Below, piece after piece: positions 4,377 through 58,976 of a stretch of 64,000 nt of DNA. The DNA lies in NCBI GenBank assembly GCA_002118135.1, contig BDIU01000275.1, forward strand, positions 168-64,167, written 5' to 3'. The notes beneath the pieces are model-generated. The model searched no databases, was not told the DNA's origin, and was given only the letters and a program-made list of their open reading frames with translations. Each line of letters starts with the position of its first letter. Within the stretch, counting starts at the first letter, position 1. Both the position numbers and the translations under genes were made by a program. This DNA is from Trebouxia sp. TZW2008. Its lineage: Eukaryota > Chlorophyta > Trebouxiophyceae > Trebouxiales > Trebouxiaceae.

Positions 4377-4661
4377 GTTGCTGACACTGCACATGTCTAC
4401 AAGCGTTATACAGTGTAACACAATCACATGCTCTGAATTGCGTTGGAAGGCGGTGTCACGCCATACAATAAACATACAGCAAAATCACTTCAAATGCGTT
4501 GACTCAGACAGTCTGAGGCTTCAAATGGATCCTATGAACACAATGCACATAAGTCTGCTGTTGTGTCAGCCACTGCTAAGTGCCATCACTTGATGACACA
4601 GAGTGATGTTGTATTCATACGCCTGATGTTGTGTCTTGCTGAACATGACGCAATGCAAAGC
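4377..4661 (-). repeat. Inverted repeat, left arm (about 285 bp)
   Basis: Reverse-complemented, this arm matches 5699-5980 over its whole length with scattered differences. Shared blocks include GTCAGCAAGACACAAC-type, AGCAGTGGCTGA, GTATGGCGTGACACCGC and AATTCAGAGCATGTGATTGT. The satellite next to it (4662 to about 4780) is also in reverse orientation, so the arm and its satellite flipped together. Confidence 0.85.
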
Positions 4662-5698: not shown

Positions 5699-5980
5699 GC
5701 GTCATGGTCAGCAAGACACAACAGCAGGCGTATGACTACACTACCACTCACTGTCACCAAGTGATGGCAAGAAGCAGTGGCTGAGACCACAGCAGACTTG
5801 CCTGCGCTATATTCATAGAATCCATTTGAAGTCTTGGACTCCTTGTGTCATAGATTTGTGCAGGACATCAGCTTTGCTTTTGTTGTATGGCGTGACACCG
5901 CATTCCAATGCAATTCAGAGCATGTGATTGTTTTGCATTGCAACCTATAGTATTTGTAGGCGTGTGCAGTGTCAGCAATA
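5699..5980 (+). repeat. Inverted repeat, right arm (about 282 bp)
   Basis: This is the partner of 4377-4661. It follows the satellite in the same order as the left arm does when read on the other strand. The unit [GCWTT satellite plus about 280 bp tail] is therefore present twice, head-to-head. No coding capacity, terminal repeats or target-site duplication were recognised. Confidence 0.85.
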
Positions 5981-11563: not shown

Positions 11564-14489
11564 ATGTGTGAGGAAATAGACAGGCAGGTTCTGCGGAAGT
11601 ATGATATCGAGTCCAAGCTTGGCAAAGGGGTAAGATTCGACCACATGCTGTCAATATCAAATCTTTCTAGAATTTCAACCATATGGTCATCTGAGCATTG
11701 GTTTTGCAGGCATATGGCATAGTGTGGAAAGCGATAGACAAGAAGACCCATCAGACTATCGCACTGAAGAAAATCTTTGATGCCTTCCAAAACTCCACAG
11801 ATGCCCAGGTAAGCTTGCACACATTCAATGCAACACAAGCATCAGGCACACACAGGCAAAAGCGCTTGCATGCTTAATGACTGGCGACACAGCACAAATT
11901 TAGGCTTGATGCATTGTGACCTGTGCTGTGTTCCTCGCAGAGGACCTTCCGGGAGATCATGTTTCTGCAAGAGCTTGGCTCACACGAAAACATCATCAGG
12001 TACTGTCAGGCTTGGCATATTAGCTGTTTAACTGCAGCACATCTTTGCCCTACCTTTGCCCAACCTTTGCTGCGCCGGCAGACAACCAACTCAAGCTGTT
12101 GAATGTTTTGCAGATTGCAGAACGTGCTCAAAGCTGAGAATGACAAAGACATCTACTTGATATTTGACTACATGGAGACAGATTTGCATGCTGTGATACG
12201 AGCCAACATTTTGGAGGACATTCACAAGTCATACATCATGTATCAGCTGTTCAGGGCGCTGAAGTACATGCACTCAGCAGATCTGCTGCATAGAGATATC
12301 AAGGTGAGCTCGCCTGAATTACAAGAGATGCTGTACATTGACTCCCATTCACATGCCTTTGCACAAGCACAAACGGTTGCGCATGATGCTGCATCTCGTC
12401 CCAGGCTGAGTTTAGCAGACTATATAATTGGTTGCAGTCCTGCAGAGCCATGTACTTACACCTTGAGCATGAGCAAGCCTCCTGTCATAGCCAAAATTTG
12501 CGTGCTCACGCATGGCGGATTGCATATGCTCAATTGACTGACATATGTACTGTATGTGCTACAGCCCAGTAATCTGTTGTTGAACAGCGAGTGCTTGGTC
12601 AAGCTGGCAGACTTTGGGCTGGCTAGGTCTGTTGCTCAGCTCAGAACAGAGCTCAATCCTAGCTGCATCCTCACAGACTATGTTGCAACGCGGTGGTACC
12701 GTGCTCCAGAGATCTTGCTAGGCTCTGCCAAATACACTACTGGAGTGGACATGTGGTCAAGCGGTAAGCCCAAGCTGAGCAATCTGCACCTGCAGGGCGT
12801 TGATAAGCTTCTGCATCAGATCATGGCAGATGCAGCTCTATTGCAGAGGGTCGTGCTCAACACTTGCAAGATGCCATCCTTGCATGCAGGCTCCAGCCAA
12901 ATGCAAAATGCTATGACTGTGCATGCAATTATGCATTATACAAAGCTTCATGATGCTGTGCCAAGTGCAAAACAAAATACCTTGATTCTTTGCCTCATGT
13001 GCAGCAAATTTGTGCTGCTGAGTCTTAAGCAAGCATTATGTGCAAAAGTGCAGCACCAGCTGACTTAATATAAGCTTAGGGACCCCAAAGCTGTGTCTGC
13101 AATGCAGGGTGCATATTGGGGGAGCTGCTGGGTGGCAAGCCCATGTTCCCTGGGGCCTCCACCATGAACCAGCTGGACAAGGTCGTTGAGGTTACAGGTA
13201 ACTTCATGGCATCACAGCTTACCTCAAGCTTTTCACCTCGCTTTGCATTACTATACATGACATTGCTCTAAGTTTTGCAGTGCTGCTGCACAGCTGACAG
13301 CGCTTGATGCAAGCAGTGAAAGAGGTCAAACGTGTGCAATACTTTGTTGCATGTCGTAGCCCAATCCTGCAAGCTGGCATACAAATGCAATCATACGTAC
13401 AAGCTTCACTCCAATATTGCATATTCTTCCTTCCTTTTGCTGGCCAGCTCAGCAACAGGTATGCAACAGAACAGATGCTGGGAGCTCAACTAGTACTGCA
13501 GAGGCAATCAACTGTCCTCGACATTGGCATCTGCTGTATATACGTCAAAAATGCTGCAAACCCTCATATGTCAGAAATCTGTGTTTTACGCTGTTTGCAA
13601 GAATTCAGCAGAATCGACTACAGTAGGGTAGTTGCTGCCAGTCAGCTGTGCGCACATGAAGAGGTCCTGCTTCATCATCTTGTCTCTCAGCCTGCTTAGC
13701 AGCATCTTGAACCATAAGCTACTCAATGACAGGCATATCCGCCATTGACAAATGGCCATCTTAGCAAGTCCTTCAAGATGCATTGCAGCAACAAGCTATG
13801 CTGCATGCAGGTGTCCCATCGCCTGAAGACATCGAGGCTGTACACTCTCAGTATGCTAAGACCATGATGGAGACGATGCTGCGGCCCAACTGTGATCCCA
13901 ACAAGCTGCAGCGCATGTACCCCCATGCATCAGCAGACGCACTGGACCTCATGCAGAAGCTGCTGCAGTTCAACCCTGACAAGCGGCTGACTGCTGAGGA
14001 AGCTTTGCAGCACCCATATGTGGCGCAGTTCCATAACCCTGATGATGAGCCTGTTGCGGCAGGACCCATCACCATCTCTGTTGATGACAACAAGAAGGTA
14101 CTGGCGCAAAAGTCCCCTTCAACAAATGCCTGATACTGTTTGGCATGCAAATTGTTTGAGGCAGTCCTGATGTTGCCCATGTGCTTCACCTCTGCACACG
14201 TCAGAACAAACTGTGATTGTTCAAACTTTACCACTGTCACTTGTTTGATAAATGGCAAGACAACAGACTTGTAGAAGTAGCTGTTCTTATTGGCATGTTC
14301 GAGGTGTTTGTGGCTGTGCAGATATCCATGCTTGAATACCGAGACAAGCTGTACAATGAGATCTTGAAGCGCAAGAAAGAGCAGCGAAGACTAATGAAGG
14401 GCAGGGAAAGAGAACCAGGGACTACCAGCAGCAGCAGGACGCGTTCCACCAGGCATGCCCGGCATAGCGACGGTAGCCGTTACAGATAG
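11564..14489 (+). CDS. MAPK15: MAP kinase, MAPK15/ERK7 type, TDY activation loop
   Basis: A serine/threonine kinase. Members of this class act at cilia/centrosomes and in autophagy in other eukaryotes. Eight exons join in frame: 11564-11629, 11710-11808, 11941-11999, 12114-12303, 12565-12763, 13108-13197, 13811-14097 and 14322-14489. They give 385 residues. Seen in order: glycine loop [21 protein letters not shown] lysine, catalytic HRDIKPSN, DFGLA, activation loop [27 protein letters not shown], and [38 protein letters not shown] is typical of ERK7/8. Animal ERK7/8 carry TEY, whereas this has TDY. WSSG replaces the usual WS-hydrophobic-G. The tail is basic and Ser/Arg-rich and short compared with animal MAPK15. 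A TGTAA, the usual green-algal polyadenylation signal, lies at 14610-14614. Alternative: another MAPK subgroup with TDY. Confidence 0.93.
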
Positions 14490-25221: not shown

Positions 25222-27631
25222 CTACCAGACTGAGTAACCACCGTCAATGACCATGTTGGCTCCAACCATGTAGCTGCTGGCGTCTGAGGCCATGAACACC
25301 ACAGCTGCCTGCATGTCAGCAACCTCTGCCAATCTGCCAGCTGGAATCTTGATCAACCATCCCTCTCTGAGGGCTTGCACAGCCTCAGCCTGTGCAACAC
25401 CCATCACTGTCAGCCAATGAAATCCAATTTAAGATCCTCCTGGTACCAACCTTGAGGCACTTGGTTTGGGGATAATCTTTGTTGCAAGAGCGATGCAATT
25501 GAGGATCTTTGACAATCAGTCCACCCCGACTGCAAGGGCAGTCCTGAGTAAGCATGATAAGTATATCAGGACACGTGTCTTGAACAGATGCAGTGATGAT
25601 ATCAACAAAACGATGTAGTACCAACACAAAAACACATGCTACACAGCAGGGTATGTTTGGCAGTGCGGTCAGTACCTCCAGCTGAGGTGTGTTGACATAG
25701 CCAGGGGAAAGGCAATTGACATTGACGCCTCTGTCAGCCCACTCACAACCCAGTGTCTGGGTGATCTTTACCACAGCTGCCTTGGAGGCATTGTAAGCTG
25801 CCTGCTTCTGTGGGTGTAGCACACACAAGGCAGTCATGCTGGCCATGTTGATGATCTTGCCATAGCCCTGTGCTAGCATGTGCTTGCTCTCAGCCTGTAA
25901 CAGCAGACAGTAGTGCCTGATTGCAGACAGTAGTGCCTGATTGATAGGCACTAGTGCTGTCACACTACAATCCTTGCACGCAGTCACTGATTGATGTGTA
26001 CACACCCACATCTGCATGGCCAGCTCAGTGCGTATTCAGCCATGATTCAGCCAGGTTAATGATCCAGCCATAGCCCTGTGCTAGCATGTGCTTGACCCCA
26101 GCCTGCAACAGCAGACAGTAGTGCCTGATGGGTAGGAGCGACAGCAGGCACTAGTGCCTGATCAATAGGCATTGATGCTATCACGCTATGTCCATCACAC
26201 ACAATCACTGATTGCTGGATACAATGGCACGTCTGTATGGCCAGCTCAGTGCATATTCAGCGCATTCTCAGACAGCATTGGTTCATGCTACAGCCATTGT
26301 TTTGTGTGTTGTCATTACTGTTTGGTGGTCAAATAGGTGCGCCAATGTAGAGCTGAGAACGACAGAAGCATCTGAATGTTCAGGTTATAAGTGCATTGAA
26401 TCTTCAACATGGGATCAGCATGCGCAGTACCAGTGCCCATTCAAAGGTAATGCTTTGTGGAGGACAAATGTTTTGTAATGACCAATCAACTTCGTAAAGG
26501 ACGCACTATGGTCACCTGACAGCACAGGAAAAGCCCCTTGGTGTTGACATCAAAGACTTGGTCCCATTCTTCCTGTGTGGTGTCCTCAGCAGCACTGTTT
26601 CTGAGGACGCCTGCATTGTTGACGGCAATATGTAGTCCGCCAAAGCGAGCAATGACAGTCTCTACCATCCTGTGCGCCAACATGGCGATATCACAACTAT
26701 CATTGTACAGCATAAGGAGGCAATCAGCAAGCACCCAAATTGCAGTGTGCAACACAAAAAGCTTGTTTGCAGCATGCATGCATGGCTTGTTGCTTTGCAG
26801 ATTTGCAAGCCAGAGGTGACATAGATCAATCCTGCTGACCAAGTGCTGAGCAGAGTATGAGCATGATCTGTATCTGCGATTGATTGTGCAACAACCAGCA
26901 AAGCCAGCAGGAAGCAACAAACCTTTGGCAGTCCAGTTTTTGACTGACATCTGCTTGGATAGCAATGCTGCTGACGCCCTTTTGTTGCAATTGGTCACTG
27001 ACAATCTGAGCTGTTTTGAAATTTATGTCAGCAACAGCCACATTAGCTCCTGCCTCGCCCAGCGCATGTGCCAACGCCTTGCCAATGCCTTGACCAGCAC
27101 CTGCATGATAATAGCACCCGGCACAATTACAACTAGTTTTGCATGTACAATTAGTTAGCACAATTCTTTTTTTTTGCTTCTACACAACAGTGTCCAGGAC
27201 CCTTTCGTGCATTGTTTATGAGCATGCACGCAGACGTGCATGCTTGAAGGGTAGCTTACCTGTGACGAGAGCCACCTTATTTTCAAGCTTGAATCGCTGC
27301 AGGATGGAACCGTTCAAATCGGCAGCTGACTCTCTGGAAAGGATTTGTGGATGCCTGTCGGCCCTGCGAGTATTTCACAGGACGCTGTTCGCTACGCTTG
27401 CTGCAGTACTGAACGATAGATCAAGCTCCCGCGCCATTGTCACACATACTTGGTTTGGGATGCAGAGGTCGGTTCACTGCTCGACAAGACCTCGCAAGCC
27501 TGTCGCACGAGAGTCTGGACAACGTCCAGACTTTGATCGGCTGATGCCTTATGCAAAAGACCAAGCGCTTCTGCTGCGCATCTGTCGGCTTCATGTCCGA
27601 CAGCGCTTTGGCGTTGAATACCCGATGCCAT
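25222..27631 (-). CDS. Short-chain dehydrogenase, MT-less paralogue of MT-Ox
   Basis: A classical NAD(P)-dependent short-chain dehydrogenase. Six exons join in frame: 27631-27450, 27363-27260, 27100-26923, 26669-26516, 25894-25676 and 25389-25222. They give 334 residues. Motifs: VALVTGAGQGIGKA cofactor loop, VNNAG, the INMASMTA catalytic serine, YNASK (Tyr and Lys), and a VIDGGYSVW end. Exons 3, 4 and 5 have exactly the lengths of exons 7-9 of the fusion gene at 29353-33259 (178, 154, 219 bp) with the same phases and about two-thirds identical residues, so the two are tandem duplicates. In place of the methyltransferase it has a 90-residue leader with two predicted helices (EALGLLHKAS and VVQTLVRQACEVLSS). 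The substrate is unknown; it probably acts on a cyclitol or sugar-derived ketone like its paralogue. Part of exon 5 is duplicated upstream in intron 4. Confidence 0.88.
25861..26262. repeat. 208-bp duplication: exon 5 edge plus intron
   Basis: CATAGCCCTGTGCTAGCATG starts at 25861 (inside exon 5) and again at 26069. On the - strand the outer copy has an acceptor (TTGCAG) and reads KHMLAQGYGWIIN before diverging. A 20-bp tandem (GCAGACAGTAGTGCCTGATT type) lies inside the inner copy near 25903-25942. Confidence 0.85.
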
Positions 27632-29352: not shown

Positions 29353-32300
29353 CTACCAAATGGATTGACCACCGTCCACGACAAGGTTGTGACCAATCAT
29401 GTAGTTGCTTGCATCAGACGCCAGGTACACAATGGCAGCCTGAAGATCTGTAACCTCTGCAAGTCTAGCAGCAGGTATCTGTGCCAACCAAGTCTCTACA
29501 AGTGGCTGAAGGTCCTTGGATTCCTGCAAAACAGCAATGCGCTGTGAGCAAACACCTGGTGGCACAACAATCTTCCTGTGTCAAACAAGCATATTAAATT
29601 GAGAGTCTGCTTCCATCAAGGGTAAATACATGAGCATATTGGGATACTAGCAGGCGGTAGTGATCATTAGGCAATGGCAATCAGCAGGATTTAGCAATCA
29701 GCAACAAGATACCTGAATCAGAGCAGTGTTGACAATTCCTGGGGATATGCAGTTGACATTGAGACCTCTGTCTGCCCACTCGGTGCCCAGAGTCTGTGTG
29801 ATCTTGACAACTGCTGCCTTGGATGCATTGTATGCTATCTGCTTCTGAGGGTGTGGCACTAGCAGAGTTGCCATGCTGGCTGTGTTGATGATCTTGCCAT
29901 AGCCTTGTGACAGCATGTGCTTGCCTTCTTCCTGCAGTTACCAGCACAAACATGAGCTGATCTGTGCCTTGACTCAGTCACCATCACCAACACAGCACAT
30001 GAAGCTCAGTGCTAGTATTGTGGCTATCTTGAACAAAGCTTACAATGGTTGCGCTCTGATGAGTAGCTGCAGCTCTAACAGTATTGTTTGCAGTAGCCGA
30101 AACTACAGCAGTTCTCACAAGTGATGCTGATGCTGTCTCACAACAGTGTACACAGTTCGAATGCTACACATAACATACGAGCCCATGTGTTTGCATACAT
30201 GGCCTGAGCATGTGCATGTTTGCCCACCTGACAACACAAGAAGACGCCCTTGGTGTTCAGGTCAAAGGTGAGGTCCCAATCCTGCTCAGTGGTATCCTCA
30301 GCAGCACTGTTCTTGTTGATGCCAGCATTGTTGACTGCAATGTGCAGCCCACCCAACTGAGACACCACAGTCTCAACCATCCTGCACATCATGCAAAATT
30401 GGTCAGAGGAAAGGCTGCAAACTTCTGCCCTGACTTGCTCAAGGGTATCTGCTGCAGCATGGTTGCAGAACATGGTGTGATGGCCATGTTTTATTCACTC
30501 TACAAGAAGACAAGTCTAGATTGCAACAGACACGCCCAACCCCTGGCAATAGCCTCATATTGACCCTGAAAATGCAGTAGCCTCATATTGACCCTGAAAA
30601 TGCAGTAGCCTCGTATTGAGCCTGAAAATGCAGAAGCCAATGCTGCCTCACAACGTCAACAAACATACCAATGTGACAACAAACAAGCAACAGCCTGTTA
30701 CGGAACAGCAGCACGGCTTACTTCTTGCAGCTGTCCTTCTTGGTGACATCTGTCTCAACAGCAATGCTGCGGACGCCTTTGCTACGCAGCTCCTCAGTCA
30801 CGATTTGCGCCTTTTTGAAGTTGATGTCCACAATGGCCACCGAGGCACCTGCCTCACCCAGGGCATGTGCAAACGCCCTGCCTATGCCCTGACCAGCACC
30901 TGTGTGACACCAATTAGTCCTTGAATTGGTGCTCCGCATTGTCACCATAGCTGAATGCTGGCTTACGGGCATTGACACCATTGCTCACATTCAGAGCGGG
31001 ACATAACTGCATGCCCAGCACAACCTTTTGACTTGTGTGCTGACGCTCTGGTCAAGTCACAGGCCTTGAGGTTAAGTCTGACTGCAGCATGCGCAACAAC
31101 TGCAGACTCACAACAGCTTGATTTTATTTGCAAGCAGGCATACCTGTGATGAGTGCCACCTTGTTATTTAGCTTGAAGCGCTGTGCAATCAGGTTGTTAT
31201 GTAGACCAGTCATGACATCGTCCACATCGCCTGTTGGCTGCCTGCACAACCCAAACAACTAAGCGCCAAAACGAGCAGTCAGATGGGCAGTGCTGATTTG
31301 CACTTATGCTTGGAACACAACACAAGTCACACACTCTTGAAAAACAATTGACGGGCAAGACCAACGCTGCGGCTTGAGTTGCTCACAGAGCAATTGAACA
31401 CTTGTGGGCATCAGAAGAGCAGGCAGGCCGACACAGGCTGGACATTGCTGTCGCAGGCAGGAACTGAAGCTGTACCTTCTTTGCACAATGTTCACGCCGT
31501 CCCTGAAGGGCAAGGCAATGACCTCGACCCGCTTGTCCTTGATGACGTATTCATTGAACTCCTTGATGGCAAGGGCCATCTTGTCACCACTGTCACCAGG
31601 CGCATACACTCTTCCCTGCCGACATTCAAACATGCTTCAGCTACAGCTCACAGCAGAAACGGTGGATACATGCATGTGTTATGAAATGTCATGCAGGCAG
31701 CTCATAACCATATCTTGCACACAGCACAGACTTGTGTGAGAAAGCAAAGTGATAACATGGCAACTTGAAGGGTCAAAACTGGCAGCATCAAGCTAGCAAC
31801 ACTTTGATTGTGGTGCTAGCATCATAGCTTTTGATCAGGCACAAGGGGGAGCCTTGGTGGATCACTACTGCGACGCACCTTCATCAGTGCATTGTCTACA
31901 ACAACAATGCCCCCAGGGTTGATGAGCTGGTTGTCCATTAGCTGCTTGTAGTATCCAAGGTAGCCTGACTTGTCAGCATCCAAGAAAGCGATGTCGAAAC
32001 GCTCGCCGCGCTTCTGAAGCTTCTCAATGCTATCTGTGGCTGAGCCAATCAGCACCTCAATCTGTTTGCTGACACCAGCAGCATCAAACTTGGGCTGAGC
32101 TAGCTCAAGCATGTAGGGCTCAATCTCCAGGCAGTACACCTGCATGCATACACAATGCAAATCATCATTACATACCAAAAACAACACCTCCACACACTCA
32201 GAGCCATTGCAATCATGCTGTGTTCAAGGTTGCTGTGCACATGCTGAGACTGTGCCATAATAGAAACACTCTGTTGACATTGTCCCCTGTTGGGTCCCAG

Positions 32301-33259
32301 TGATAGTCCAAATTGATTGAAGGAAATGCTGTGGCTGTGCCACAGTTTACAATGGACGCTTGAATCCAGGAATAAAATGGTCAAGGTGGCAGAGATGAGC
32401 ATCCTCAGCAAGCATCTAGCTTATACATCAGATCGATGCATAGGTGATGTGTTGATGGTGTGTTGATGGTGTGCAATGGGGTCACAGGCAGGGTGTTGCT
32501 CACCTTTCCATCCTTAGGAATGACCTCGGCCATGGCTAAGCTAGATGTGCCTGTGAACATGCCAACTTCTAGCACTGTCTTGGCGCCTGTCAGCCTGACC
32601 AGTGACTTGAGAAATGAGCCTTCCAAAGCTCCAGCACAACACTCCTTCTTCTGATGGAACTGTGTCTTTTTCTGTGCAGCATGAATGAAGTTTCAGTTGC
32701 GCGCGTGACATGACATGCTCAATTCCAACATAATTGCATGCAGCGCATGCCTTCAGCCAAGACACAATGCAAGCTGACAAACACCAATGTCAGATGATCA
32801 GTGCATCTGGTGCACAGATTCATGCTGAGCAATAGTGTGCAGCTCATTAAACCGTCAATGCTGAAGATATATATGCATGCAAGCCACAGCCATCAAAACT
32901 CAGTCAAGCTTACCTGCTCATATGCTGAGTCCCAATCATGCTTCATGGAAAGCTCGATGAGACTTTGGCAAACCTGCACCAGCAAGGCATTAGCTCGAAT
33001 CACATGACATGCAAAATTTGCATTGGCAGCTGATCATCTATGCTAAGCATACCGAGGACGGAGGCGTAGACACGGATTCCATGTATGAATCCAATCCCGA
33101 AACGACATCATAAGCTTTCTGAAGCTGCGACTTCACATCGGCAACGTTCTCAGCTGCGAGTGCGCTCTGCAGCAGCGCAGTGATGACCTCCACGGGCGTA
33201 TCAGGCTGCCCACTGGCATGAATATCACTGCTCTTCACCGCCCCATTCGCAGAAGCCAT
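29353..33259 (-). CDS. MT-Ox: MT-Ox: methyltransferase-oxidoreductase fusion
   Basis: In fish this bifunctional enzyme turns 2-epi-5-epi-valiolone into gadusol, using S-adenosylmethionine and NAD+. Ten exons join in frame: 33259-33053, 32973-32914, 32671-32504, 32139-31879, 31615-31476, 31241-31144, 30899-30722, 30381-30228, 29931-29713 and 29523-29353. They give 551 residues. Residues about 90-278 are a class I O-methyltransferase of the CCoAOMT/MysB type: AGALEGSFLKSL, SAM motif VLEVGMFTGTSSLAMAE, FDIAFLDADKSGYLGYY and GGIVVVDNALMKGRVY. A linker (about 279-301) leads to a classical short-chain dehydrogenase: VALITGAGQGIGRA, VNNAG, the catalytic serine in NTASMATL, YNASK and the VVDGGQSIW end. 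An N-terminal helical leader of about 65 residues precedes the methyltransferase. It starts 556 bp from the EEVS gene, divergently. The alternative, two separate genes, is weakened by the exact phase match across the joining intron and by the lack of a good start for the second half (only an in-frame Met in the linker). Confidence 0.88.
30551..30634. repeat. 28-bp tandem repeat, three copies, intronic
   Basis: AGCCTCATATTGACCCTGAA recurs at 30551, 30579 and 30607 within intron 7 of the MT-Ox gene. Period 28 bp, with few differences. Confidence 0.85.
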
Positions 33260-33815
33260 GACGCAAAACTTCTCACAATAGCTCAACAGCACTCAGATAC
33301 CGTGCTGCGGTGCCGTCACGCAGTCAGACCTAGCTCGCAGCGACGGGATGAACGTAGCCACGGAGGGGATGTTGAGGATGCGTGGCCGCACGTGAGTTGT
33401 ATGAAGTCGATAAGTGTGGCATGTGAGGCAAGTGATTGCACGGAGCCGCGCCACGGAACGCTGGGACGGCGTAAAGTATACGGCAATCCAGCGGCTCGGT
33501 GACATGGCCCCTCAGAATGCCTTAAAGTACGTGGTTCGTGTCCAATTTGTCGACGTGTCTGCCTACTACATATGTTACGTCGCTTGCCTTCCGAATTCCC
33601 GTTCACGCACACGGAATCGTGGCAGTGGCTTTACACAGCGAGCTTGTGTCAAAGTCGGCATCTACAAGTGCAACTTTCATCACGAGCAGCATCACACTGC
33701 ACCTTTGCAGCTTGTAGATCCGCGCCTTTAGATCTGACAGTGTCGGTCCATCGGCCTGCTATTCGCATCCGCTGAGGCTTGCTCTGTGCCGACTTTTCTC
33801 GCTTGATCTTGAACA
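33260..33815. promoter_or_regulatory. Shared divergent promoter region, MT-Ox / EEVS
   Basis: 556 bp lie between the start codons of two genes that act in sequence in one pathway, so co-regulation is likely. No light- or UV-response element could be identified by eye. Confidence 0.6.
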
Positions 33816-36800
33816 ATGGTGTCTTCCGCAATGCTTCTTGGCAGCACTGCACCTACCTGCTTCAGTAGCACATCCCAGAACTTGAGCTCAAGGTATGTTG
33901 CAAGCGCTGCGCTCAGTCGCCTGGCTTGTCTGCTGGTTACGTCGGGCAGTCGGGCAGTCTCAAGCAGCAGGCATTGACAAGCTCCTGACGGCTTCAGGTC
34001 TATCAGCTCAAGGCTCAGCGCACTCCGCCGGCCATCACAGACCAGCAACGGTGTTGATGGCTTGCGGCTTAAGGCAGTAGCGTCAGCAAAGCGCCCGTCA
34101 GTAGCAGCGACAGGCCGGGCTGCAGCGGTCGACGAGATCATGGTTGCAGAGCCAGCGCCCGCGACCCCTGCAGCAGCATCTCCTGTTGAGGACAATGTTT
34201 GCATGTCAGGGCTTAACGGACTGACAGCCGGTGGCGTTGAGGGACTCGACTCGGTATGATGCATTCAAGCATGCATGCCTCCAGCTTCTGCAGGCTTCCG
34301 CATTTGTATACTGCAGTTCCATCATAGCCATCTTGTGTACTGTTGTTGTTTGCAGTCATGGAGCACATTGTATTCGCAGAGTCTAGTTCACTTAAAGCAT
34401 CTTGCATGTTGCCCGCCATCTATCTGCTCATGCCCTCAACTGAATGCTGTTTGCAGGGTGTCTTCCATGTGGCGGCACAGCAGCCAGTCCTATACACAGT
34501 CCAAGAGTCTTTGGACCTGCTATCTCTAGACAACAAGGTATGATCAGGCACAAGCTGTGCTTTTGCAGCAGTAGATTAGCCTGCAAAGTCTGCATGCGGG
34601 CGTTGCTGAATTCTGATGGCATGCATGCCAATGTACTTTGTACTTGCAACTGACATCCTTCTCTTGTGTGCAGTCACTGTTGCGTGGTCTGCTACCAGAC
34701 TCATTTCCAGCCAGATTGGCAGCAGAGCCTGCCAAAGAGAAGCAGAGGCGCTTCATCATCATTGATGAGGTGGTGCATGCCACTTACGGTGACAAGCTTG
34801 AGCAGGTATTGAGTTGACCCTCTTGTCTTGCCTTACATAACGTTGATCAGCAACACAAGCGCTCGCAAGACACTGCGCTATACTGCCATCTGACAATGGG
34901 TTTTTGAGACCTGAAGCTTCTCAAAAACAGCATTGTGATGTGTCAAACTTGCATTTTGATTGAACGTAGCAGAATCCATCACTGCTTGTTTGCTGGGTGT
35001 GTCTCAAGCTTTGTAGGTAAGAGTCCTTGGCTTTCTGCAATGGTATAAAGTTGTTAGTCATGTCAGTGTGGGCCATCCTGGCGCTGGGTAGGTTTGTCTC
35101 TCTCTTCCTTTGGATTCTGTGCATGTGCAACATGGTGAACTACCAAGAAGTGTTACTCTGACTTTTGTTACGTTTTGACTCTCCAGTTGGCCGGTATCAG
35201 AGGATAAGCCAAGTCCGTGGCAGTTGGAACAGAACAGGACGGAGCATCTCACAAGGCAACTCATGCCTAACAGTCTTGGTCTTGGGCCCATACAGATTTG
35301 CTGACTTCCCAAATCTGCAGCTCTGTTGACCTTGCCTCTTTTGCAGGTATCAACTGTTGTGAAGGTGAGCAGTATGATCTCACAGTTGTGCTGTTACGCA
35401 GGGTTCAGGTCTAACGATGTCTGTTTCACTGTCTCTTGCTTTGTAGGCAGCATGTGCAGCACATGCTGCACCATTGTCACCTGTCAGGAATGTAATCCAA
35501 AGTGATCACATACAAATGTGCCCCATCTATCTTCCTTTACTGGTCCCGCCGTTTCAAGCCACCCTTGTGCTGATGCTTCACATGTCAGCTGTTTTCTGGC
35601 TTTGTAACAGCCAATTAGCTGTACTTGTTGCGACACCTTTCCACACACCCTTCCACCCTTTTGCCTGAAGAGTAGTCAGAACACTCATTGTGCAGATGTG
35701 ACCAGCTTTGTGCTCACACTGACAATCTTCTTACATGGTGCGACCTTGTGCAGTACATGAAGCATCACGGAGTGGAGTATGAGATTCTGCCTCTTCCCAC
35801 TTGCGAGCCCAACAAGAGCTTCAACCTGATCTTCAAGGTAGCAGAGCGCCTGGAGGCCTTCAAGCTGAACAGGTGAGCTTTAGCTGTCCTGCATTCCAGC
35901 TTCACTTGTGCTGCTGTGGCCTATTGCATGTCTTGTTTCCTGTTCAGCATGCATATCATGTTGCTTGGTATCTACACCATTTTATGTTGCTGCACCAACT
36001 GCTTGCTTGCTTGTTTGCATATGTCATAGCATTGTCAATGTCTGCAGTTTGCAGCTGATGGGTTGTCCTGTTCGCTGAGCAGCTCACTGAGCACTTGCTG
36101 ATTGGGTGCTCATTTTTCGTGCAGGCGTAAGGAACCTATCATTGCCATTGGTGGAGGTGTCTGTCTTGATGTTGCTGGTCTGGCAGCTAATCTATACAGA
36201 CGCAACACACCCCTCATCAAGATTCCCACCACAGTCATGGCCGCTGTTGATGCTTCAATTGGCATCAAGACAGCAGTCAACTTCCATGGCCGCAAGAACA
36301 AGATGGGCACCTACTGCCCACCTTTGGCTGTCTTCATTGACAAGACTTTCCTGAAGACCTGTGGTGACAGGCACCTCAGCAATGGGTCTGCTGAGATTCT
36401 GAAGATGGCTTGCATCAAAGACCGTGAGCTGTTTGAGCTGTTAGAGAAGCACAGCAAGGAGCTGATTACAAGCAAGTTCCAGGTAATTGCAAACGTCCTG
36501 CTTCTGTCTGCCGTCTGCACTTCATATTGTGACTGGCTGGTGCAGTCGGCTGGTGCAGTTGGCTCACATGTAGTCTATGTTCAATGCTGTGCACTATCTT
36601 CCTGTGTTTACTTGTGCATTTTCGACAGCTTGCCAGCAGCACGTGTTTGCCACATGTTGTGCGGCTGCATCAATGCAAGTTGCACCGCTTTCTGACGCTT
36701 CTGTCTTGTTGACTGACACCATTCTGGTGCTGTAGCACTTGTGGCTGACATCTGTTGTTGCTGTATCGTCAGATATCAGTCTGCTGCTGTAGCTGTTGTG

Positions 36801-37688
36801 TCTGACGTCTACTGTTGCTGTGTAGAGTGAGGAGGCTTCCACAATCATGAGAAGGTCCATCCAAGGCATGCTTGAGGAGCTGGAATACAACCTGTGGGAG
36901 CACATCCTCAACCGCCTGGTGGACTATGGTCACGCCTTCTCACCTGAGATTGAGATGGCAGCCCTGCAAGGCGAGGAGGCCATGCTATTGCACGGAGAGG
37001 CAGTCAACATTGACATGGCTCTGACCACTCAGCTGGCATACCAGAGGGGCTACATCAATGCTGATGAAAGGCGACGAGTGTTTGGAGTGATGAGGCAGCT
37101 GGGTCTGGCCTTGTGGCATGATGTCTGCACAGATGATGTACTCATGCAGGCAAGCCTTCTGATGTTTTTGTATATTGCATCTGCTTGCAGTGCTGCATCA
37201 TGCTGCTGCAGTGTTATAGCTTGCTCATATCTGCAGTTATTTCAAATGCGTGTCATGAGTGTCCTGCCTGTGCATGGGTCTGAGGTGCTGCTGTGTTTGC
37301 TGTGTCTTGCCTTGCAACAACAATCAGGCTTTGTATCGTGTTGGTCTACACTCAGTTTGCAGATTGAATGTAATTGCAACACCAGCTTGTTTGTTGAGTC
37401 TGTTGTCTGATTAGATTACTGCTGTTGCAGGGTCTTGAGGACACCACCAGGCAGCGTGATGGTATCCAAAGAGTGCCATTCATGAAGGGCATTGGTGAGG
37501 CAGTTTTTGTCAACGACATCACCAGGGATGAAGTTGTGGAGGCAGCCAAGTATGTGAGCCAACTACACCAAGACCAACTGGCGGAGGCTGCTCACAATAA
37601 CGGTTACCTGGCCAACTCTATCACTCCTCTGGAGCCTGTACCTCAGTCTGTGAAGCAATACATACGGGAGCCTGCTTTGGCTCACTGA
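33816..37688 (+). CDS. EEVS: Sugar-phosphate cyclase, EEVS/DDGS type, plastid-targeted
   Basis: A member of the dehydroquinate synthase-like superfamily that cyclises sedoheptulose 7-phosphate to 2-epi-5-epi-valiolone (EEVS) or desmethyl-4-deoxygadusol (DDGS). Eight exons join in frame: 33816-33892, 33998-34253, 34457-34537, 34674-34805, 35754-35872, 36125-36482, 36826-37149 and 37431-37688. They give 534 residues. The first 50-60 residues are Ser/Ala/Arg-rich with few acids (MVSSAMLLGSTAPTCFSSTS; SSRLSALRRPSQ; LKAVASA), a plastid transit peptide. Catalytic part: YGDKLEQYMKHHGVEYEILP, NAD-binding IAIGGGVCLDVAGLAANLYR, PTTVMAAVDASIGIKTAVN. The likely metal ligands are Glu in GSAEILKMA, His in DYGHAFSPEIE and His in LLHGEAVNIDMALTT. 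It ends with EAVFVNDITRDEV. EEVS is favoured over DDGS only because MT-Ox is its neighbour. Intron 7 has a GC donor (CAG|GCAAGC). Intron 4 holds a possible 18-nt in-frame microexon (35347-35364). Intron 6 shows a 57-bp duplication of its acceptor region. Confidence 0.92.
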
Positions 37689-49720: not shown

Positions 49721-51079
49721 GGTGTACCTGTCAACGCTGTTGTTGGGTCGATGTTGTATCTCGACGGTCGCGACACTGCAGACCCCAAGTCAGAAGTGCA
49801 GAGCTGCAGAGGGCGTAAGCTGCAGTTGCGAACGCGCTGTGCAGTAGCTTGGTGTTGCCTGCTACTGATCAACCTGACCTGCTTATGAAGGCCAGTGACG
49901 CTGCGCAGCGAGCTGGAGCCGGTCGAAGCGATGTCAGCGGAGATGTTCATGTTGAGATTGCTAAGCTGTAGCGCCGTGCGTAGGCACTCTCTCGCAAGCC
50001 CTTCAGCCAACTCCTTGTTTGTCATGAAATGTTACTAACGACCTCGACGGGACAGGTGCGGGCACTGTGGGGCACGAGCCTATCTTGGCAATAATTGTTT
50101 CGGTGCTGGCAGTCCTTTTTGACGGTGGCATTTGACCTGACAGCGTTCAATGTAAGGCATCTGGTACCAAGTCCATCCTTGATCTGCTGCATTATGCATG
50201 ACTGCACAATCTGCAGTCCTTCTGGGACAGGCCAGCCACGTCCACATGAGGGGGTACAGTCAGCTGGGTGGCTGCGTCAGCTTGCTGCAGGTCAATGATG
50301 ACTTTGAAGCGCTGCAGAATGTTTGCAGAATGTTACTAACGCTGCTACCTTGCATTATGACTAACATTACTAATTGTACAGCAAGCAGAAGATTGTATGC
50401 CCTTTATGTTGCATACGGCGTGCTGCAGGCAAATGTAGCCCAACGGCAACTCAGCCGAGCAGTAACAGACAACAATGGTCAAGACTATTTCTCCCTGTAA
50501 AGCTGACAGCTCACAATCGATTTTGAAGCTCTGCAGACTTTAGAGTCTTGAAGTTCTCAGATTGAAAAGTTGTGTGAGCAGATCTGGACAGTCATTGTGA
50601 CACACCAAGTGTCTATGTGTTTGAGCATTCACTGTTTGCTGTACAGTAGTGAGCGGTGGCAACTGCTGTGGCGCATGATACTGTGGTCACAGTGTGTGGG
50701 CCACCGCAGTTACCATCTGTGCTGTACTGTCAAGTCAAGACGTCCACTTACTGACTCTGACAGCACTGATGTATCACATAGCTGTCCCCACATCATGCAT
50801 ACATGTCTGTGTCCCGATCTGGTGAGTCAGGATGAGGCTCAGAGACCTATGTACTGCTTAAATGACAGATCTATGTGCATGTCCTACACTGCATTGTCCA
50901 GTAGATATGACCAATTGGCCAGATGCCTTGGTGTGTGCATTCAAGGCCAATTGAAAGCATCACATGCAACATAATGCTGAGTCAGTAAGAGTGGCTGTGG
51001 TCTTTCGTCGTAGTGTTATTGCTAATCTTAGCACAATGGGCACCAGATACGTCAATTCAAGAAGTGGTCACAGGGCTGC
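49721..51079. other. Spacer, ankyrin gene start to cytochrome c6A end
   Basis: About 1.36 kb. A - strand open segment near 50025-49880 could be a 5' exon of the ankyrin gene. Otherwise no gene, RNA or repeat was recognised. Confidence 0.4.
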
Positions 51080-51676
51080 TCATTTCCACTTGAGTGCAGC
51101 TTGATCTAGCACATACTGTGACAGCCGTTGTATGTCCTCGTCTGGAATTCTGGGCCCAAAAGTGCATTTGCCCTGCAATCCACAGAAATGCAGAGCAGTG
51201 GGTATTGCTGAAAAGCCCCCCAAAATGCTGTATACGCTCATGGCAAAGCAATTTCTGATAGCACATGTGCTTTGTGACAGCAATGGAGCTATCAGGAGGT
51301 GCATAGGTGCATCGCATGATCAGAAGGTGATGAAGCATGAAAACAATGTATACACGGCTTACCCGGGGTGAACATTCCTTTCCATATCCTGGCATTTTCC
51401 CTTTGCCATAGTACACTAGCTTGTATATGGCATCAGTTGTTGCTGCTCCATTCTTCTGTAGGTCATTCGTTTGAAGGGACGCGCCCCCCTGAACAATATT
51501 GCCTCCTCCAGCATGACAGCCTATCTAGCACACGGGCTCCAAAGTGAACTCTTGCTCGCAAACACACAATGTGCTGTGAGACAGGAAGCGGATCAAGCAG
51601 CACATCTACATTTTGCAGCAGCAAATCAAGCTACACTGACCTACACAGCCACTCCGCTGAAAGACCTCAGCTGGCT
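51080..51676 (-). CDS. Cytochrome c6A, thylakoid lumen (5' end unresolved)
   Basis: A haem protein of the thylakoid lumen found in plants and green algae, related to cytochrome c6. Three exons are in phase: 51676-51641, 51520-51363 and 51172-51080 (stop). Joining the first two restores the haem-binding CVGCH, whose codons span the intron. The exons continue HAGGGNIVQGGASLQTNDL, YKLVYYGKGKMPGYG (axial Met in KMPGYG), and KECSPRGKCTFGPR. That last stretch is the extra loop with two cysteines that separates c6A from c6. The protein ends LSQYVLDQAALKWK. Upstream exons for the bipartite transit peptide are missing. A segment ending near 51862 with a GTAAGC donor has the right phase but no start codon. 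Its function is debated (thiol oxidation in the lumen has been proposed). Confidence 0.92.
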
Positions 51677-54593: not shown

Positions 54594-56012
54594 CTAGTGT
54601 ACAGGCATGGAGTCCCCACGACTGGCAACAAGGCATGCAATGACAAGCAGGGCACCCCCAAACCAGCCCCTGACCCCTAAATGTTGCTCAGCCTTATTGA
54701 CAAGTCCAGCAAAAGCCACAGAAATGAGTGGATCAATAGCAAGAATGATTTGACCATGACTAGCACTGATGCGGGACTGAGCCTCAATTTGAGCAATCTC
54801 TGCAGTTGACCATGGACCGATAGCAGGCCATAACAAAATCAGCCACGCTACTGGATTATGCCATCCAGCCCATATTGACAAGACCGACTGGCCTATTGCA
54901 ACCTTGTATATGACATCAGAAAGTAACCACAGGAGAGACATGCCAGCCATGACTGTCAGCTTTGCAGCAGCCAGATCAGTGGCAGGAAAACACGATGCAT
55001 GGCGACTTTGACGCACCATGACAGCAGACCAAAGCACCGCAGCACAGATGATCAGCAGATCACCCAGAATGCTCACATGACTGATGTACGTGTCACTGTC
55101 AGGTGACTGATTGGCAGGATCAACAGGGTCTGTGCTGATCAGGACACTGCCAGTGAACCCAAGTACTGCACCAGCCCACATGGCCTTGGCAACTGAAATG
55201 CCAGCTAGAGTAGACAAGATGGGTGTTGATACAATTGAGGATCTGAGCAGAAAAGCGCCCCTGCTGGTTGTAGCCAGAGCAAACCCAATGATGGTCACAG
55301 CATTCGCTGTGAAGGTCAGCAGGCCCAACTCAAGCCCACCAATGCGCACATCGTCAGTTGACCAGTTCAGCAAACGTGCCATCTGGTAGCGTAAGCCTGA
55401 CTTTGGGTTGTCTGAAGCATTGGACTCGATGCTGAGACTGAGGGAGTGACCTGTGGCTGCCTCTATGTCATTGTCAGGAGTGCTTGGGGCCTTGGTTGTG
55501 TCAGACGTCACCAGGGCAACTTCTGTTGCTTCAACCTCTAGGTGATCAAGAGGGGGCAAAGCCTTTCTGACTGGGTGACTGTCTGACTCCTTTGCGGGCG
55601 TGTGCTCCCCATCAAGCTCAGCGGGTTTTGAGTGTTGGTCAGGATCTTCGACATGGCTACTGTGTCTGTTGTGCTCAATTAGCTCTTGTGTGTCTGCGTC
55701 TGAGTCTGAATGTACAGGCGGGGTTTTCTCCCTAGACAAGCTTGCCTTTTGCCTGTTTCTGGCTACTCTGATGAGGTAGCTGATGGCTTGAAGTATCACA
55801 GCTGCTAGGCCAGTCTGAGCAGCTGACAAGACGGGAGCATCTGGTGGTCCAGGCGAAGTGTACAGATATCGCAATGCTGCAGGATTGGAGCCCCAAAACA
55901 ATGCAGCCACAAACATCAGTAGCTGGCCGATTGTGCTGGCTCTTCGTTTGAGCGCTGTCTGAGCTGATGATACATGCTGAGACTCAGGTTGATTTACAGC
56001 GCCCTCGGACAT
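54594..56012 (-). CDS. EamA/DMT-family transporter, intronless
   Basis: A drug/metabolite-transporter superfamily protein of the EamA type (about ten membrane helices in two halves), 472 residues in a single open frame. The first half opens with LLMFVAALFWGSNPAALRYL. After the second hydrophobic segment there is a long acidic, Ser/His-rich loop (about residues 95-215), which is unusual. It continues with LLTFTANAVTIIGFALATTS and GAVLGFTGSVLIS. The second half carries DLLIICAAVLWSAVMVRQS, LIMWPAI-type helices and the last SVAFAGLVNKAE and GALLVIACLVASRG segments. Substrate unknown; plant relatives export amino acids or other small metabolites. It is the only long intronless gene in a window where every other well-resolved gene has introns, which hints at retroposition or transfer. 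It is divergent from L-galactose dehydrogenase. Confidence 0.88.
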   Translation of the reverse strand: MSEGAVNQPESQHVSSAQTALKRRASTIGQLLMFVAALFWGSNPAALRYLYTSPGPPDAPVLSAAQTGLAAVILQAISYLIRVARNRQKASLSREKTPPVHSDSDADTQELIEHNRHSSHVEDPDQHSKPAELDGEHTPAKESDSHPVRKALPPLDHLEVEATEVALVTSDTTKAPSTPDNDIEAATGHSLSLSIESNASDNPKSGLRYQMARLLNWSTDDVRIGGLELGLLTFTANAVTIIGFALATTSRGAFLLRSSIVSTPILSTLAGISVAKAMWAGAVLGFTGSVLISTDPVDPANQSPDSDTYISHVSILGDLLIICAAVLWSAVMVRQSRHASCFPATDLAAAKLTVMAGMSLLWLLSDVIYKVAIGQSVLSIWAGWHNPVAWLILLWPAIGPWSTAEIAQIEAQSRISASHGQIILAIDPLISVAFAGLVNKAEQHLGVRGWFGGALLVIACLVASRGDSMPVH

Positions 56013-56604
56013 GCTGTCTGCCCTTGACGCTGCCCGCTGTTCAAGGTGACTGCAGAGGGCAAACTCTCTTTTTGCACCCGCCTACAACTGTGATGACGAA
56101 CACGAGCAACTGAAACTGTCAATCCATACCTTGACTTGGCGCGCCGCATGCAGCCAACAAACGGAGCTGTCCATAGACAAACGTCACTTCAAATCCAATG
56201 TCAGGATCGCACACCGGTCGATACACTCTTTGCTGCCCAAACCAGGCAGATCATGGCATACAAGGTCTCACCAGGACATGTTAGGACTTTGCCTGATGAC
56301 TAAATCAGCAGCATCGCAACGCTGCCTGATCTCAGCGCAGCCAGGCTGGCTCGGCCACGTCGAGAGAAAACTTGTAATCAGCCACGAAAAATGTAACGCA
56401 TGCGCACCACTGCAGCGCCACGCTCTGCAATCTGCAGTCCTGCAGCTCGTCCATTGCGGCCTTCCTATCTGCTGTTGGTGCGTTCTGTTTGCTTCAGACT
56501 GTTTCGCTGATCGAACTGTTTTACCGAGGCGATATCTTGAAAGGTTGTAGCCGTACGTGCTGATCTTGCTCCGGGTACTCGTCAACACTTTGCACGACAA
56601 TATC
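56013..56604. promoter_or_regulatory. Divergent region, transporter / L-galactose dehydrogenase
   Basis: 592 bp between divergent starts. Both promoters lie here. No element was assigned. Confidence 0.45.
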
Positions 56605-58976
56605 ATGGTACAAGCACCGACGCAGCTGCCGAAGAGGGCTCTTGGCAAGACCGGCGTGCAGGTGTCATGCATTGGCATGGGCTGCAGCCCCTTCGGGCAC
56701 GCATACGGGGTGAGCATCGCTGACTGCATGGAGGCAAGGATCGGATTCGGATTTGTTGAGCTGCCGCAAGCAATACATGGTTTTTGCGCAGTCGCCAGAC
56801 GAGGATGCAGCAATGAAAGCTGTAGACGAGGCTTTCAAGCGCGGCGTCAACTTTTTCGATGTTGCACCTTTCTATGCCTCCGGCGATGCTGAGCGGGTGA
56901 GCGATTTATGCCAAGTCCATCAACTTGATGTTGTCCCTTTCATTGCTGCTTGTGAGATGCTGGGTCATCCAGATCGACGACATTTACATGCGTTGCAGTT
57001 GTTAGGACGAGCCATCAAGCACCTGCCTCGAGACCAAATTGTTGTTGCAACCAAAGTTGGCAAATATGTGGCTGGAGAGCCTGCAGACTTCAGCGCAGCC
57101 CGTGTCACAAAAAGTGTACATGAGTCCCTAGAAAGGATGCAACTCAAATACATTGACCTTATTCAAGTCCATGACATCGAATTTGCTGAGGACATGCGTC
57201 AGGTAAGGCATGCATTGATGCCATCCTGCATAGTCATAATTGCTACGCATCACTTGCCTGGAAAGATTCAGTATCTGCACATAACTGCCTGCTGACAATG
57301 CCAGAAGGTCTAATGACACATTGCAAAGCTTACTGGCCTTTGCATGCCAGCAACACATTGTGCAGCATGCATACCCCTCTAATAAGTCATGCATCTTGCA
57401 GATAGTCAATGAGACCATTCCAGCGCTTCAGAAGTTGAAGAAGGAAGGCCTTGTCAAATTCATTGGCATCACAGGCTATCCTTTGGATATCTACACATAT
57501 GTGCTAGACAGGTAGGTCACGCATTTTGCAAGGACCTGAGCGTCCTCAGCACACGCACATCCTACTCAAATTGACAGGCAATCATGCACACATGCTGCTG
57601 ACTACAAACTTCATTGCCACTGCGTTTGAGCTTTCCAACAGCTCAAGGAGTCAGTAGCCCTGTTTGCGGATGGTTTGCTGCATGCTGCATTGTATGATGG
57701 CGTCAATGTGACACAAATCGCAAAAGAGTCTATGCCTCAAGTTTTGAATTGCTGCGTGCAGGGCACCAGCTGGTGCTGTTGACACCATTCTGACGTACTG
57801 TCACAACAATCTGGCTGACCAGACGCTGCTGGACCTGCTGCCATACCTACACGAGAAGGGAGTAGGAGTTATCAGCGCCTCCTTCTCTTCAATGGGCCTT
57901 CTAAGAAAAGAGGTGAGCGCCTTGCAAAGCTGACGAGCATGGAGTAGTCGTGCTTGCTGCCGTTCTGCTGTCGTTCTGCAGATTACAACTCACCAGATAC
58001 TGGTTTGGTGCCTGTCTTGATGCCTGCTACATGTCCTCCAGCAGATTGTTGTCCTGGCATTGGCGCTGCCATTATTATCCCAGCGTTCCAACAGCCAAGC
58101 AACGTTGGCTTTGAAGAACCTGCACACATCATCTGTCACCTGTCGCGACAGCTGTTGTGGCATGCACCTGGCTCAACACCAAACGCTCAATTTAATTTCC
58201 CCATTAGCATGTTGCAAGACATATTGACATTGCGTATCTGCAGGAGGAAAGCAAAGAGTTCAGCATCATGCTTGGCTTGTGACTGCAGGGACCTCCAGAC
58301 TGGCATCCAGCACCAGCGCCTGTGAAGGAGGCCGCAGCCAAGGCTGCCAAACACGCCCAGTCCAGAGGCACCGACCTGGCCAGGCTGGCCATCACAGAGT
58401 TTGTCAGGTAACAACTTGCAGCACCCATACTTAGCATTGCTCACTGTTCGTCCAAGTACTGTTACGTAAATTGCAAATGCGAAGGATTTATGCCTCCGCC
58501 AAGATGTCGAGTCAAGTTGAGTAGGTCTGAAGTTGTTTGCGACTGAGGATGTTTTGATAGCTTGCTGTCTGCAAAACCAATGCTTTGCAGCATTATGCTT
58601 CACTTTCCACATGCGTGTCCGCAACGATCGTCCCAAGGTGCAGGCACATGTCTTGAGCTCCATATGGAGCATTGCTCAGTGATTTTGACGCTGTGATCCA
58701 CCGTTGTGTTGCAAAGAAAAGCAGAATGTTACAAAACCGCCTTGTTCAAGTATGTAAGTTTGGTCTTGCAGGACTGAAGGCATATCACTCAACTTGATGG
58801 GCATGGCGACTCCTCAGGAGGTAGACACAGATGTGCAAATCACTCTAGAGGCCTTGGGGGTGGTACCATCAAAGTCTGCAGCTCTGGATGCTGAAGTCTT
58901 GCCGGAAGTGAAAGACATATTCAAGCCCGTCATGAACACTACATGGAAGACTGGGCTGCAAGATAACAGGAAGTGA
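56605..58976 (+). CDS. LGALDH: L-galactose dehydrogenase
   Basis: Oxidises L-galactose to L-galactono-1,4-lactone with NAD+, the penultimate step of the plant/algal ascorbate pathway. It is an aldo-keto reductase acting in the cytosol. Seven exons join in frame: 56605-56709, 56792-56896, 56999-57202, 57402-57511, 57762-57912, 58289-58407 and 58772-58976. They give 332 residues, close to plant L-GalDH (about 320). Family blocks: LGKTGVQVSCIGMGCSPFG, NFFDVAPFYASGDAE (catalytic Asp and Tyr), IVVATKVGKY (Lys), the HDIEFAEDMRQIVNETIPAL stretch, KFIGITGYPLDIYTYVLDR, VDTILTYCHNN, LLDLLPYLHEKGVGVISAS and GPPDWHPA. The last block, common to L-GalDH, rules out most other aldo-keto reductases. Confidence 0.95.

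What the first reader, a model, noticed from the sequence alone, without database searches (positions are those of the whole stretch)
29353..37688. Gadusol-type sunscreen gene pair (EEVS + MT-Ox) in an algal genome
A sedoheptulose-7-phosphate cyclase-like gene and a methyltransferase-oxidoreductase gene lie head to head. In fish exactly this pair makes gadusol, a UV-absorbing antioxidant. In cyanobacteria the related mysA/mysB pair makes 4-deoxygadusol for mycosporines. Here both genes are intact by exon phase and family motifs. No ATP-grasp (mysC) or ligase (mysD/E) gene lies within the window, so the product may be gadusol itself rather than a mycosporine. The pair as such is known from animals, and I believe algal homologues have been noted. 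The new part is the local arrangement and the extra paralogue.
Basis: partly seen in the sequence, partly recalled or inferred. Interest (0 to 1): 0.93.

Follow-up and report, generated by a model that had tools for sequence, protein, structure and literature searches.

The report
Lichen alga sunscreen gene pair
A green alga of the lichen-forming genus Trebouxia carries, side by side, two genes like those that fish use to make the sunscreen gadusol; such pairs are already known from other green algae, but here a third, amino-acid-attaching gene lies elsewhere in the genome and the first enzyme has an active-site change shared with the algal and chytrid relatives that were examined.

Summary
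A 10-exon MT-Ox gene (33259 to 29353, minus) and an 8-exon sedoheptulose-7-phosphate cyclase gene (33816 to 37688, plus) lie head to head, 556 bp apart, in a Trebouxia genome. The cyclase has a leader of about 95 residues. Tree, residues and fold place it with EEVS rather than DDGS/MysA or DHQS. The pair in green algae is already published (Coccomyxa 2015; a four-gene neighbourhood 2020). Best reading: gadusol is made and then joined to an amino acid, as in prasiolin. Against: prasiolin was not found in cultured T. arboricola (PMC5947255). New here: the site of ValA His360 is His in 84 of 84 other rows and the one fish row, but in none of 35 algal and chytrid rows among the 120 best hits (Gln457 in the window), so the product needs a test; and an Ox-only duplicate of MT-Ox lies next door. 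New member of a known kind.

The parts
29353..33259 (-). MT-Ox gene: methyltransferase (Methyltransf_3) plus short-chain dehydrogenase; exons 33259-33053, 32973-32914, 32671-32504, 32139-31879, 31615-31476, 31241-31144, 30899-30722, 30381-30228, 29931-29713, 29523-29353; 551 aa
   Evidence: Splice model in frame; P0121 100% identical; Pfam PF01596, PF00106, PF13561 on P0121; keeps 226 of 307 residues invariant in 13 fish rows
33260..33815 (.). 556-bp spacer between the two start codons (shared promoter inferred, not tested)
   Evidence: Gene models
33816..37688 (+). EEVS-type sedoheptulose-7-phosphate cyclase gene; exons 33816-33892, 33998-34253, 34457-34537, 34674-34805, 35754-35872, 36125-36482, 36826-37149, 37431-37688; 534 aa
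   Evidence: Splice model; Trebouxia orthologues; tree; fold search of orthologue P0001 best hit ValA 4p53
33816..34253 (+). two 5' exons coding the N-terminal leader (about 95 aa before the SGLNGL motif); plastid transit peptide inferred
   Evidence: leader composition; residues 1-68 of the P0001 model have pLDDT under 50
37452..37454 (+). codon for Gln457, at the column of ValA His360
   Evidence: codon place worked out from the exon table and the sequence
25222..27631 (-). Ox-only paralogue of MT-Ox, 6 exons, 334 aa, no methyltransferase domain
   Evidence: Model and 190 of 330 identical columns with MT-Ox; Pfam SDR only; shared intron positions; 71 of 83 universal Ox columns kept

Best explanation
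The pair is the first half of a gadusol-core sunscreen pathway in a Trebouxia photobiont. The cyclase turns sedoheptulose 7-phosphate into 2-epi-5-epi-valiolone, perhaps in the plastid, where the Calvin cycle supplies the substrate; MT-Ox oxidises and O-methylates it to gadusol; a MysC-type ATP-grasp enzyme coded on another contig then joins an amino acid to gadusol, giving a prasiolin-like oxo-mycosporine. The genes, their families and the open frames of the two window genes are shown; each chemical step, the compartments and the end product are inferred from characterised relatives.
For: Intact gene models. Cyclase inside a green-algal plus chytrid clade, apart from DDGS and DHQS; of 26 columns that separate six bacterial EEVS-type rows from 11 DDGS rows (one of them a gap in DDGS) the window has the EEVS residue at 22 and the DDGS state at 0 (counted); model of P0001 closest to ValA. 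MT-Ox 51-55% identical to the fish rows listed; the zebrafish enzyme makes gadusol from 2-epi-5-epi-valiolone (PMC4426668). ATP-grasp gene on C283, 64 of 71 near-invariant MysC columns kept, nearest to algal ATP-grasps that include the one of the published cluster. Prasiolin of another trebouxiophyte is a gadusol core plus glutamate (PMC4698291). Fish EEVS and MT-Ox with bacterial mysC and mysD made gadusporines (as told in PMC7826186). Full-length protein hits in contigs too short for the introns (P0122, 1944 bases; P0002, 2092; P0004, 1970) suggest that both genes are transcribed in close relatives (inferred).
Against: Prasiolin was not detected in Trebouxia arboricola SAG 219-1a nor Myrmecia bisecta SAG 2043 (PMC5947255 Table 1). 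Gln457 replaces the EEVS His. The ATP-grasp gene is not linked to the pair in this assembly, and its first 70 or so MysC-aligned residues were not modelled. The O-methyltransferase of the published neighbourhood was not identified. I saw no assay of a green algal enzyme; PMC7826186 calls them untested. Plastid targeting is weak: chytrids, which have no plastids, have leaders too.
Confidence: 0.65

Rival explanations
1. Gadusol itself is the end product; the MysC-type gene serves another pathway or is not expressed together with the pair.
For: ATP-grasp gene unlinked; prasiolin not detected in T. arboricola; fish make gadusol with the same two enzymes.
Against: The ATP-grasp is close to the one clustered with EEVS and MT-Ox in other algae; it shares a contig with the cyclase in K. 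nitens, Myrmecia and Coccomyxa viridis, judged by equal contig lengths, and has the next locus tag in Chromochloris (inferred).
Confidence: 0.2
2. The algal and chytrid cyclase is a separate sub-class whose product differs from 2-epi-5-epi-valiolone (another stereoisomer or an already dehydrated ring), and MT-Ox acts on that.
For: His360 site not His in 35 of 35 algal and chytrid rows and His in 84 of 84 others plus the fish row, among the 120 best hits of 817; positions 211 and 219, near the metal Glu in sequence, also changed; the 35 rows and the window form one clade.
Against: Leu267 and Asp281 kept in 35 of 35; MT-Ox partner conserved with fish; gadusol core found in green algal MAAs.
Confidence: 0.13
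3. Relict or decaying locus.
For: No prasiolin in the one Trebouxia strain of PMC5947255; the ATP-grasp gene has stray exon copies in its introns.
Against: Open frames and splice sites throughout; 87-91% identity to the five closest cyclase rows; transcript-like copies in relatives.
Confidence: 0.02

Closest known systems
EEVS + MT-Ox gadusol pathway of fish (zebrafish LOC100003999 and zgc:113054; Osborn 2015, PMC4426668)
   Same: Same two enzyme families side by side; MT-Ox 51-55% identical to the fish rows listed
   Different: Cyclase has a long leader and Gln instead of His at the ValA 360 site; the one fish cyclase row groups with cyanobacterial EEVS rows in my trees, not with the algae; PMC4426668 sees no evidence of MAA enzymes in fish
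Green algal gadusol-core MAA neighbourhood (Foflonker and Blaby-Haas 2020, PMC7826186)
   Same: Same EEVS, MT-Ox and ATP-grasp families, in Chlorophyta and Klebsormidium
   Different: Here the ATP-grasp is on another contig, the O-methyltransferase was not identified, and an Ox-only duplicate of MT-Ox lies next to the pair
Cyanobacterial mysABC(D)
   Same: ATP-grasp of MysC type present; methyltransferase domain related to MysB
   Different: Cyclase is not DDGS; no MysD found; methyltransferase fused to an oxidoreductase

Membership tests
[quoted passage not shown]
   Window row in a 21-row algal plus chytrid clade (95/94); 10 DDGS rows behind a branch of 3.5; DHQS rows apart, on long branches. 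Its position among bacterial EEVS is not resolved
[quoted passage not shown] numbers are chain 4p53 minus 6, inferred) | tested here: met
   E312, H377, H397; also kept in DDGS and DHQS rows, so not specific
[quoted passage not shown]
   L360, D374; 35 of 35 algal and chytrid rows; their role is recalled
[quoted passage not shown]
   Gln457; no His in 35 of 35 algal and chytrid rows. Its role in the active site is recalled from Kean 2014 and Asamizu 2012, which I could not read (for the first)
[quoted passage not shown]
   The list is not in the passages of PMC4426668
[quoted passage not shown]
   Needs an assay
MT-Ox | N-terminal methyltransferase fused to C-terminal SDR | tested here: met
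   Pfam; fish identity 51-55% over 93-98% of the length
MysC-type ATP-grasp (contig C283) | Near-invariant columns of MysC | tested here: met
   64 of 71 columns; no Pfam family at E 0.001, as for many rows
Published algal MAA neighbourhood | EEVS, MT-Ox, ATP-grasp and O-methyltransferase clustered | tested here: not met
   EEVS and MT-Ox clustered; ATP-grasp on another contig; O-methyltransferase not identified
DDGS / MysA | DDGS-specific residues | tested here: not met
   0 of 26 separating columns

The most novel reading that the evidence does not exclude
Green algae and chytrid fungi share a distinct class of sedoheptulose-7-phosphate cyclase, marked by loss of the His that the other EEVS-type rows carry, whose product or mechanism differs from bacterial and fish EEVS, so that the algal gadusol core arises by an unrecognised variant reaction.
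Probability: 0.13. Interest if true: 0.62.

Novelty: new member of a known kind. Interest (0 to 1): 0.4.

Why it matters
Trebouxia is the most frequently met lichen photobiont (abstract of PMC11523091). This genome has cyclase, MT-Ox and ATP-grasp genes, and named Trebouxia proteins of the first two families are in the database (four cyclases, one MT-Ox in the listed hits), although the one Trebouxia strain in PMC5947255 showed no prasiolin. That makes a clear test: do these algae make a gadusol-core compound only in UV light or in the lichen, or something else? The active-site change shared by the algal and chytrid rows also warns against naming these cyclases EEVS by similarity alone.

Tried and rejected
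Rejected: (1) DHQS or DDGS identity for the cyclase. (2) 'No mysC': true for the window, false for the genome. A first try with Pfam ATP-grasp_4 gave only two sub-cut-off hits on C229 (E 2.7e-4 and 0.001), where MysD also had weak hits (E 0.045 and 0.062); I did not follow these up. The C283 protein has no Pfam hit. (3) MysD: no hit in the genome at E up to 1, but the tool warns that an empty answer without a positive control shows nothing. (4) The published O-methyltransferase: I had no algal sequence; the only further SAM-motif family seen in at least 3 of the 80 cyanobacterial mysA loci (13 of 80, ORFs of 120 aa or more) gave no hit in the genome, and I cannot say that it is the same family. 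(5) The minus-strand ORF 33728-34264 as a gene: antisense to cyclase exons. (6) My first 456-aa cyclase model: replaced by 534 aa; the searches used the shorter form. (7) Placing the Ox paralogue in the tree: unresolved, long branch. (8) A phage search found nothing.

Rows left out or capped: one search used the 120 listed rows of 817 found. One search used 31 green, 4 chytrid, 6 bacterial and 2 cyanobacterial EEVS-type rows, 1 fish row and 11 DDGS rows. One search used 12 algal rows and 104 others (many unnamed) and left out P0242, P0246, P0250, P0252 and P0257 (mostly last-exon fragments). Several of the 35 'algal and chytrid' rows are unnamed metagenome or transcriptome rows, counted there because they fall in that clade without intruders (support 0.95). 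Only one fish cyclase row was in the list.
Full report
What is there. The window is bases 168 to 64167 of contig C261 (73,420 bases) of a 68.5-Mb assembly in 527 contigs. Best named protein hits are Trebouxia species; assembly size and a window GC near 49% fit published Trebouxia genomes of 63 to 74 Mb and 49.6 to 51.1% GC (PMC11523091, passages). The genus is inferred from this. The MT-Ox gene runs from 33259 down to 29353 in 10 exons (551 aa); P0121 is identical to it. The cyclase gene runs from 33816 to 37688 in 8 exons (534 aa). The genes are transcribed away from each other from a spacer of 556 bp.

Which cyclase. In a 45-row tree the window protein falls with three other Trebouxia rows (100/100) inside a green algal plus chytrid clade of 21 rows (95/94); ten cyanobacterial DDGS rows form a separate clade on a long branch, and the DHQS rows, the genome's own partial DHQS from contig C40 among them, lie apart on long branches. 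Of 26 columns at which six bacterial EEVS-type rows and 11 DDGS rows are each fixed and differ (at one of them DDGS has a gap), the window carries the EEVS residue at 22 and the DDGS state at none (counted). An AlphaFold model of the orthologue P0001 (mean pLDDT 80.7) has ValA, 4p53, as best PDB match (E 1.2e-35, 45% identity), ahead of DDGS (33%) and DHQS (27% and less).

The departure. The four columns where the window differs from both are ValA 179, 211, 219 and 360 (my numbering, chain 4p53 minus 6). At 360, among the 120 best of 817 hits, His is present in 84 of 84 other rows and in the one fish row, and in none of 35 algal and chytrid rows (19 Ala, 6 Gln, 5 Thr, 2 Gly, 2 Cys, 1 Leu). The 35 rows and the window form one clade without intruders in a 124-row FastTree tree (support 0.95). 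I recall from Asamizu 2012 and Kean 2014 that Leu267, Asp281 and His360 help to set EEVS apart from DDGS; [quoted passage not shown] In the DHQS alignment the site lies beside the Asp-Lys-Lys stretch of DHQS. [quoted passage not shown] So the name EEVS rests on kinship, with one site against it.

The rest of the pathway. A cyanobacterial MysC (from the Nostoc sp. HK-01 plasmid cluster) has no hit in the window but finds one gene in the genome, on C283:32398-36096, minus, in four matches that cover MysC residues 71 to 464 (best E 2.3e-48). The N-terminal part was not modelled. The joined 393-residue protein keeps 64 of 71 columns that are at least 97% conserved in 104 rows outside the algae. 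Its best full-length relatives are algal: Myrmecia bisecta, Chromochloris Cz11g05110, Klebsormidium KFL_002160080, Coccomyxa, Elliptochloris, Apatococcus. Cz11g05110 is the query from which Foflonker and Blaby-Haas built their ATP-grasp network. If C261 and C283 were neighbours, the gene would still lie about 60 kb or more from the pair (my arithmetic). By equal contig lengths the ATP-grasp shares a contig with the cyclase in K. nitens, Myrmecia and Coccomyxa viridis, and by locus tag it is next to it in Chromochloris; in Elliptochloris the contigs differ (inference). MysD was not found (no positive control). So the genome offers gadusol plus one amino acid, which is what prasiolin is (PMC4698291, passages).

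Against it. PMC5947255 (abstract and passages) lists no trace of prasiolin in Trebouxia arboricola SAG 219-1a and Myrmecia bisecta SAG 2043, though Myrmecia bisecta too has cyclase and ATP-grasp genes. The genes may be silent in culture, or the product may be another.

Compartments. The cyclase leader (95 residues before the SGLNGL motif; 6% acidic, 24% Ser plus Thr, 18% Ala) looks like a transit peptide, and residues 1-68 of the P0001 model have pLDDT under 50. But the four chytrid rows have leaders of 61 to 106 residues too, with 8 to 15% acidic residues against 3 to 12% in the green rows; two green rows have short leaders (8 and 24) and 6 of the 35 rows had no match to the motif. So a leader alone proves little. 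Fish rows align over 93-98% of MT-Ox, which leaves little room for a leader there.

The paralogue. The 334-aa protein next to the pair is identical to MT-Ox at 190 of 330 aligned columns and lacks the methyltransferase. Three introns lie at the same column and phase as in MT-Ox, and a fourth at the same phase one column off: most simply a duplicate that lost its methyltransferase exons (inference). It has the NNAG, INxAS and YNASK motifs (roles recalled) and keeps 71 of 83 columns that are invariant in the fish, algal and chytrid Ox domains compared; the 12 changes include Asn393, Thr439, Ala443, Pro448, Leu493, Ile494, Leu500 and Pro502, near the Ser motif and after the Pro-Gly stretch. I infer an active dehydrogenase with another substrate. 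Its nearest Ox domain by identity is P0124 (71%), and its place in the tree is unresolved.

What is known. Osborn 2015 named Coccomyxa and Aureococcus as having EEVS beside MT-Ox (passages and one section). Foflonker and Blaby-Haas 2020 proposed a gadusol-core MAA pathway in green algae (passages and sections). A 2026 paper on Asterarcys lists O-methyltransferase and ATP-grasp candidates, and an Adh_short domain among those drawn (passages); I guess that its O-methyltransferase is an MT-Ox. A 2026 Klebsormidium paper annotates gadusol by mass, with a fragment not ruled out (passages). Three Trebouxia or lichen-alga genome papers do not hold the words mycosporine or gadusol in their main text (PMC11523091, PMC11126685, PMC12712428). 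Searches of the open-licence library (listings) showed me no account of this pair in Trebouxia nor of the His360 change; most subscription papers are not held, and supplements were not searched.

Verdict. The gene pair is real and of a known kind. The shared loss of the His and the mismatch between genes and reported chemistry are the parts worth a bench test.

Noticed in passing
P0032, P0035, P0040, P0108 (cyclase) and P0144, P0158 (MT-Ox): Chytrid fungi (Fimicolochytrium, Rhizophlyctis, Thoreauomyces) have cyclases in the algal clade, and the first two also an MT-Ox; PMC4426668 (2015) knew only Aureococcus and Coccomyxa outside vertebrates.
   Followed up: partly
P0089 (Danionella): The one fish cyclase row groups with cyanobacterial EEVS rows (Gloeocapsa, Tolypothrix), not with green algae; long branch, one row, so only a lead against transfer from green algae to vertebrates.
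   Followed up: partly
L026 (C283:31501-41500) and L020 (C40:135500-140500): Introns of the ATP-grasp gene and of the DHQS gene seem to hold stray extra copies of exon pieces, some with stops.
   Followed up: no
P0007, Myrmecia bisecta: The cyclase is predicted fused to a Nudix hydrolase domain; may be a gene-model error.
   Followed up: no
P0037, P0086: Cyclase rows fused to a ROK-type sugar kinase.
   Followed up: no
window 3181-5784: Overlapping ORFs rich in Ala-Leu-His-Cys repeats on both strands; looks like simple repeat DNA.
   Followed up: no
window 51057-51524, minus: Open frame with a c-type cytochrome match (PF13442, just over cut-off), possibly cytochrome c6.
   Followed up: no
window 54594-56081 minus; 56714-57295 plus; 61013-61417 plus; 12103-12537 plus: Neighbouring genes: EamA transporter, aldo/keto reductase, ABC transporter membrane part, protein kinase; I know of no sunscreen role for them.
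   Followed up: no
L111, Ketogulonicigenium vulgare plasmid: A protein annotated 3-dehydroquinate synthase sits beside eboE and pairs with a Gloeothece row, apart from the DHQS pair: an EboD-like cyclase.
   Followed up: no
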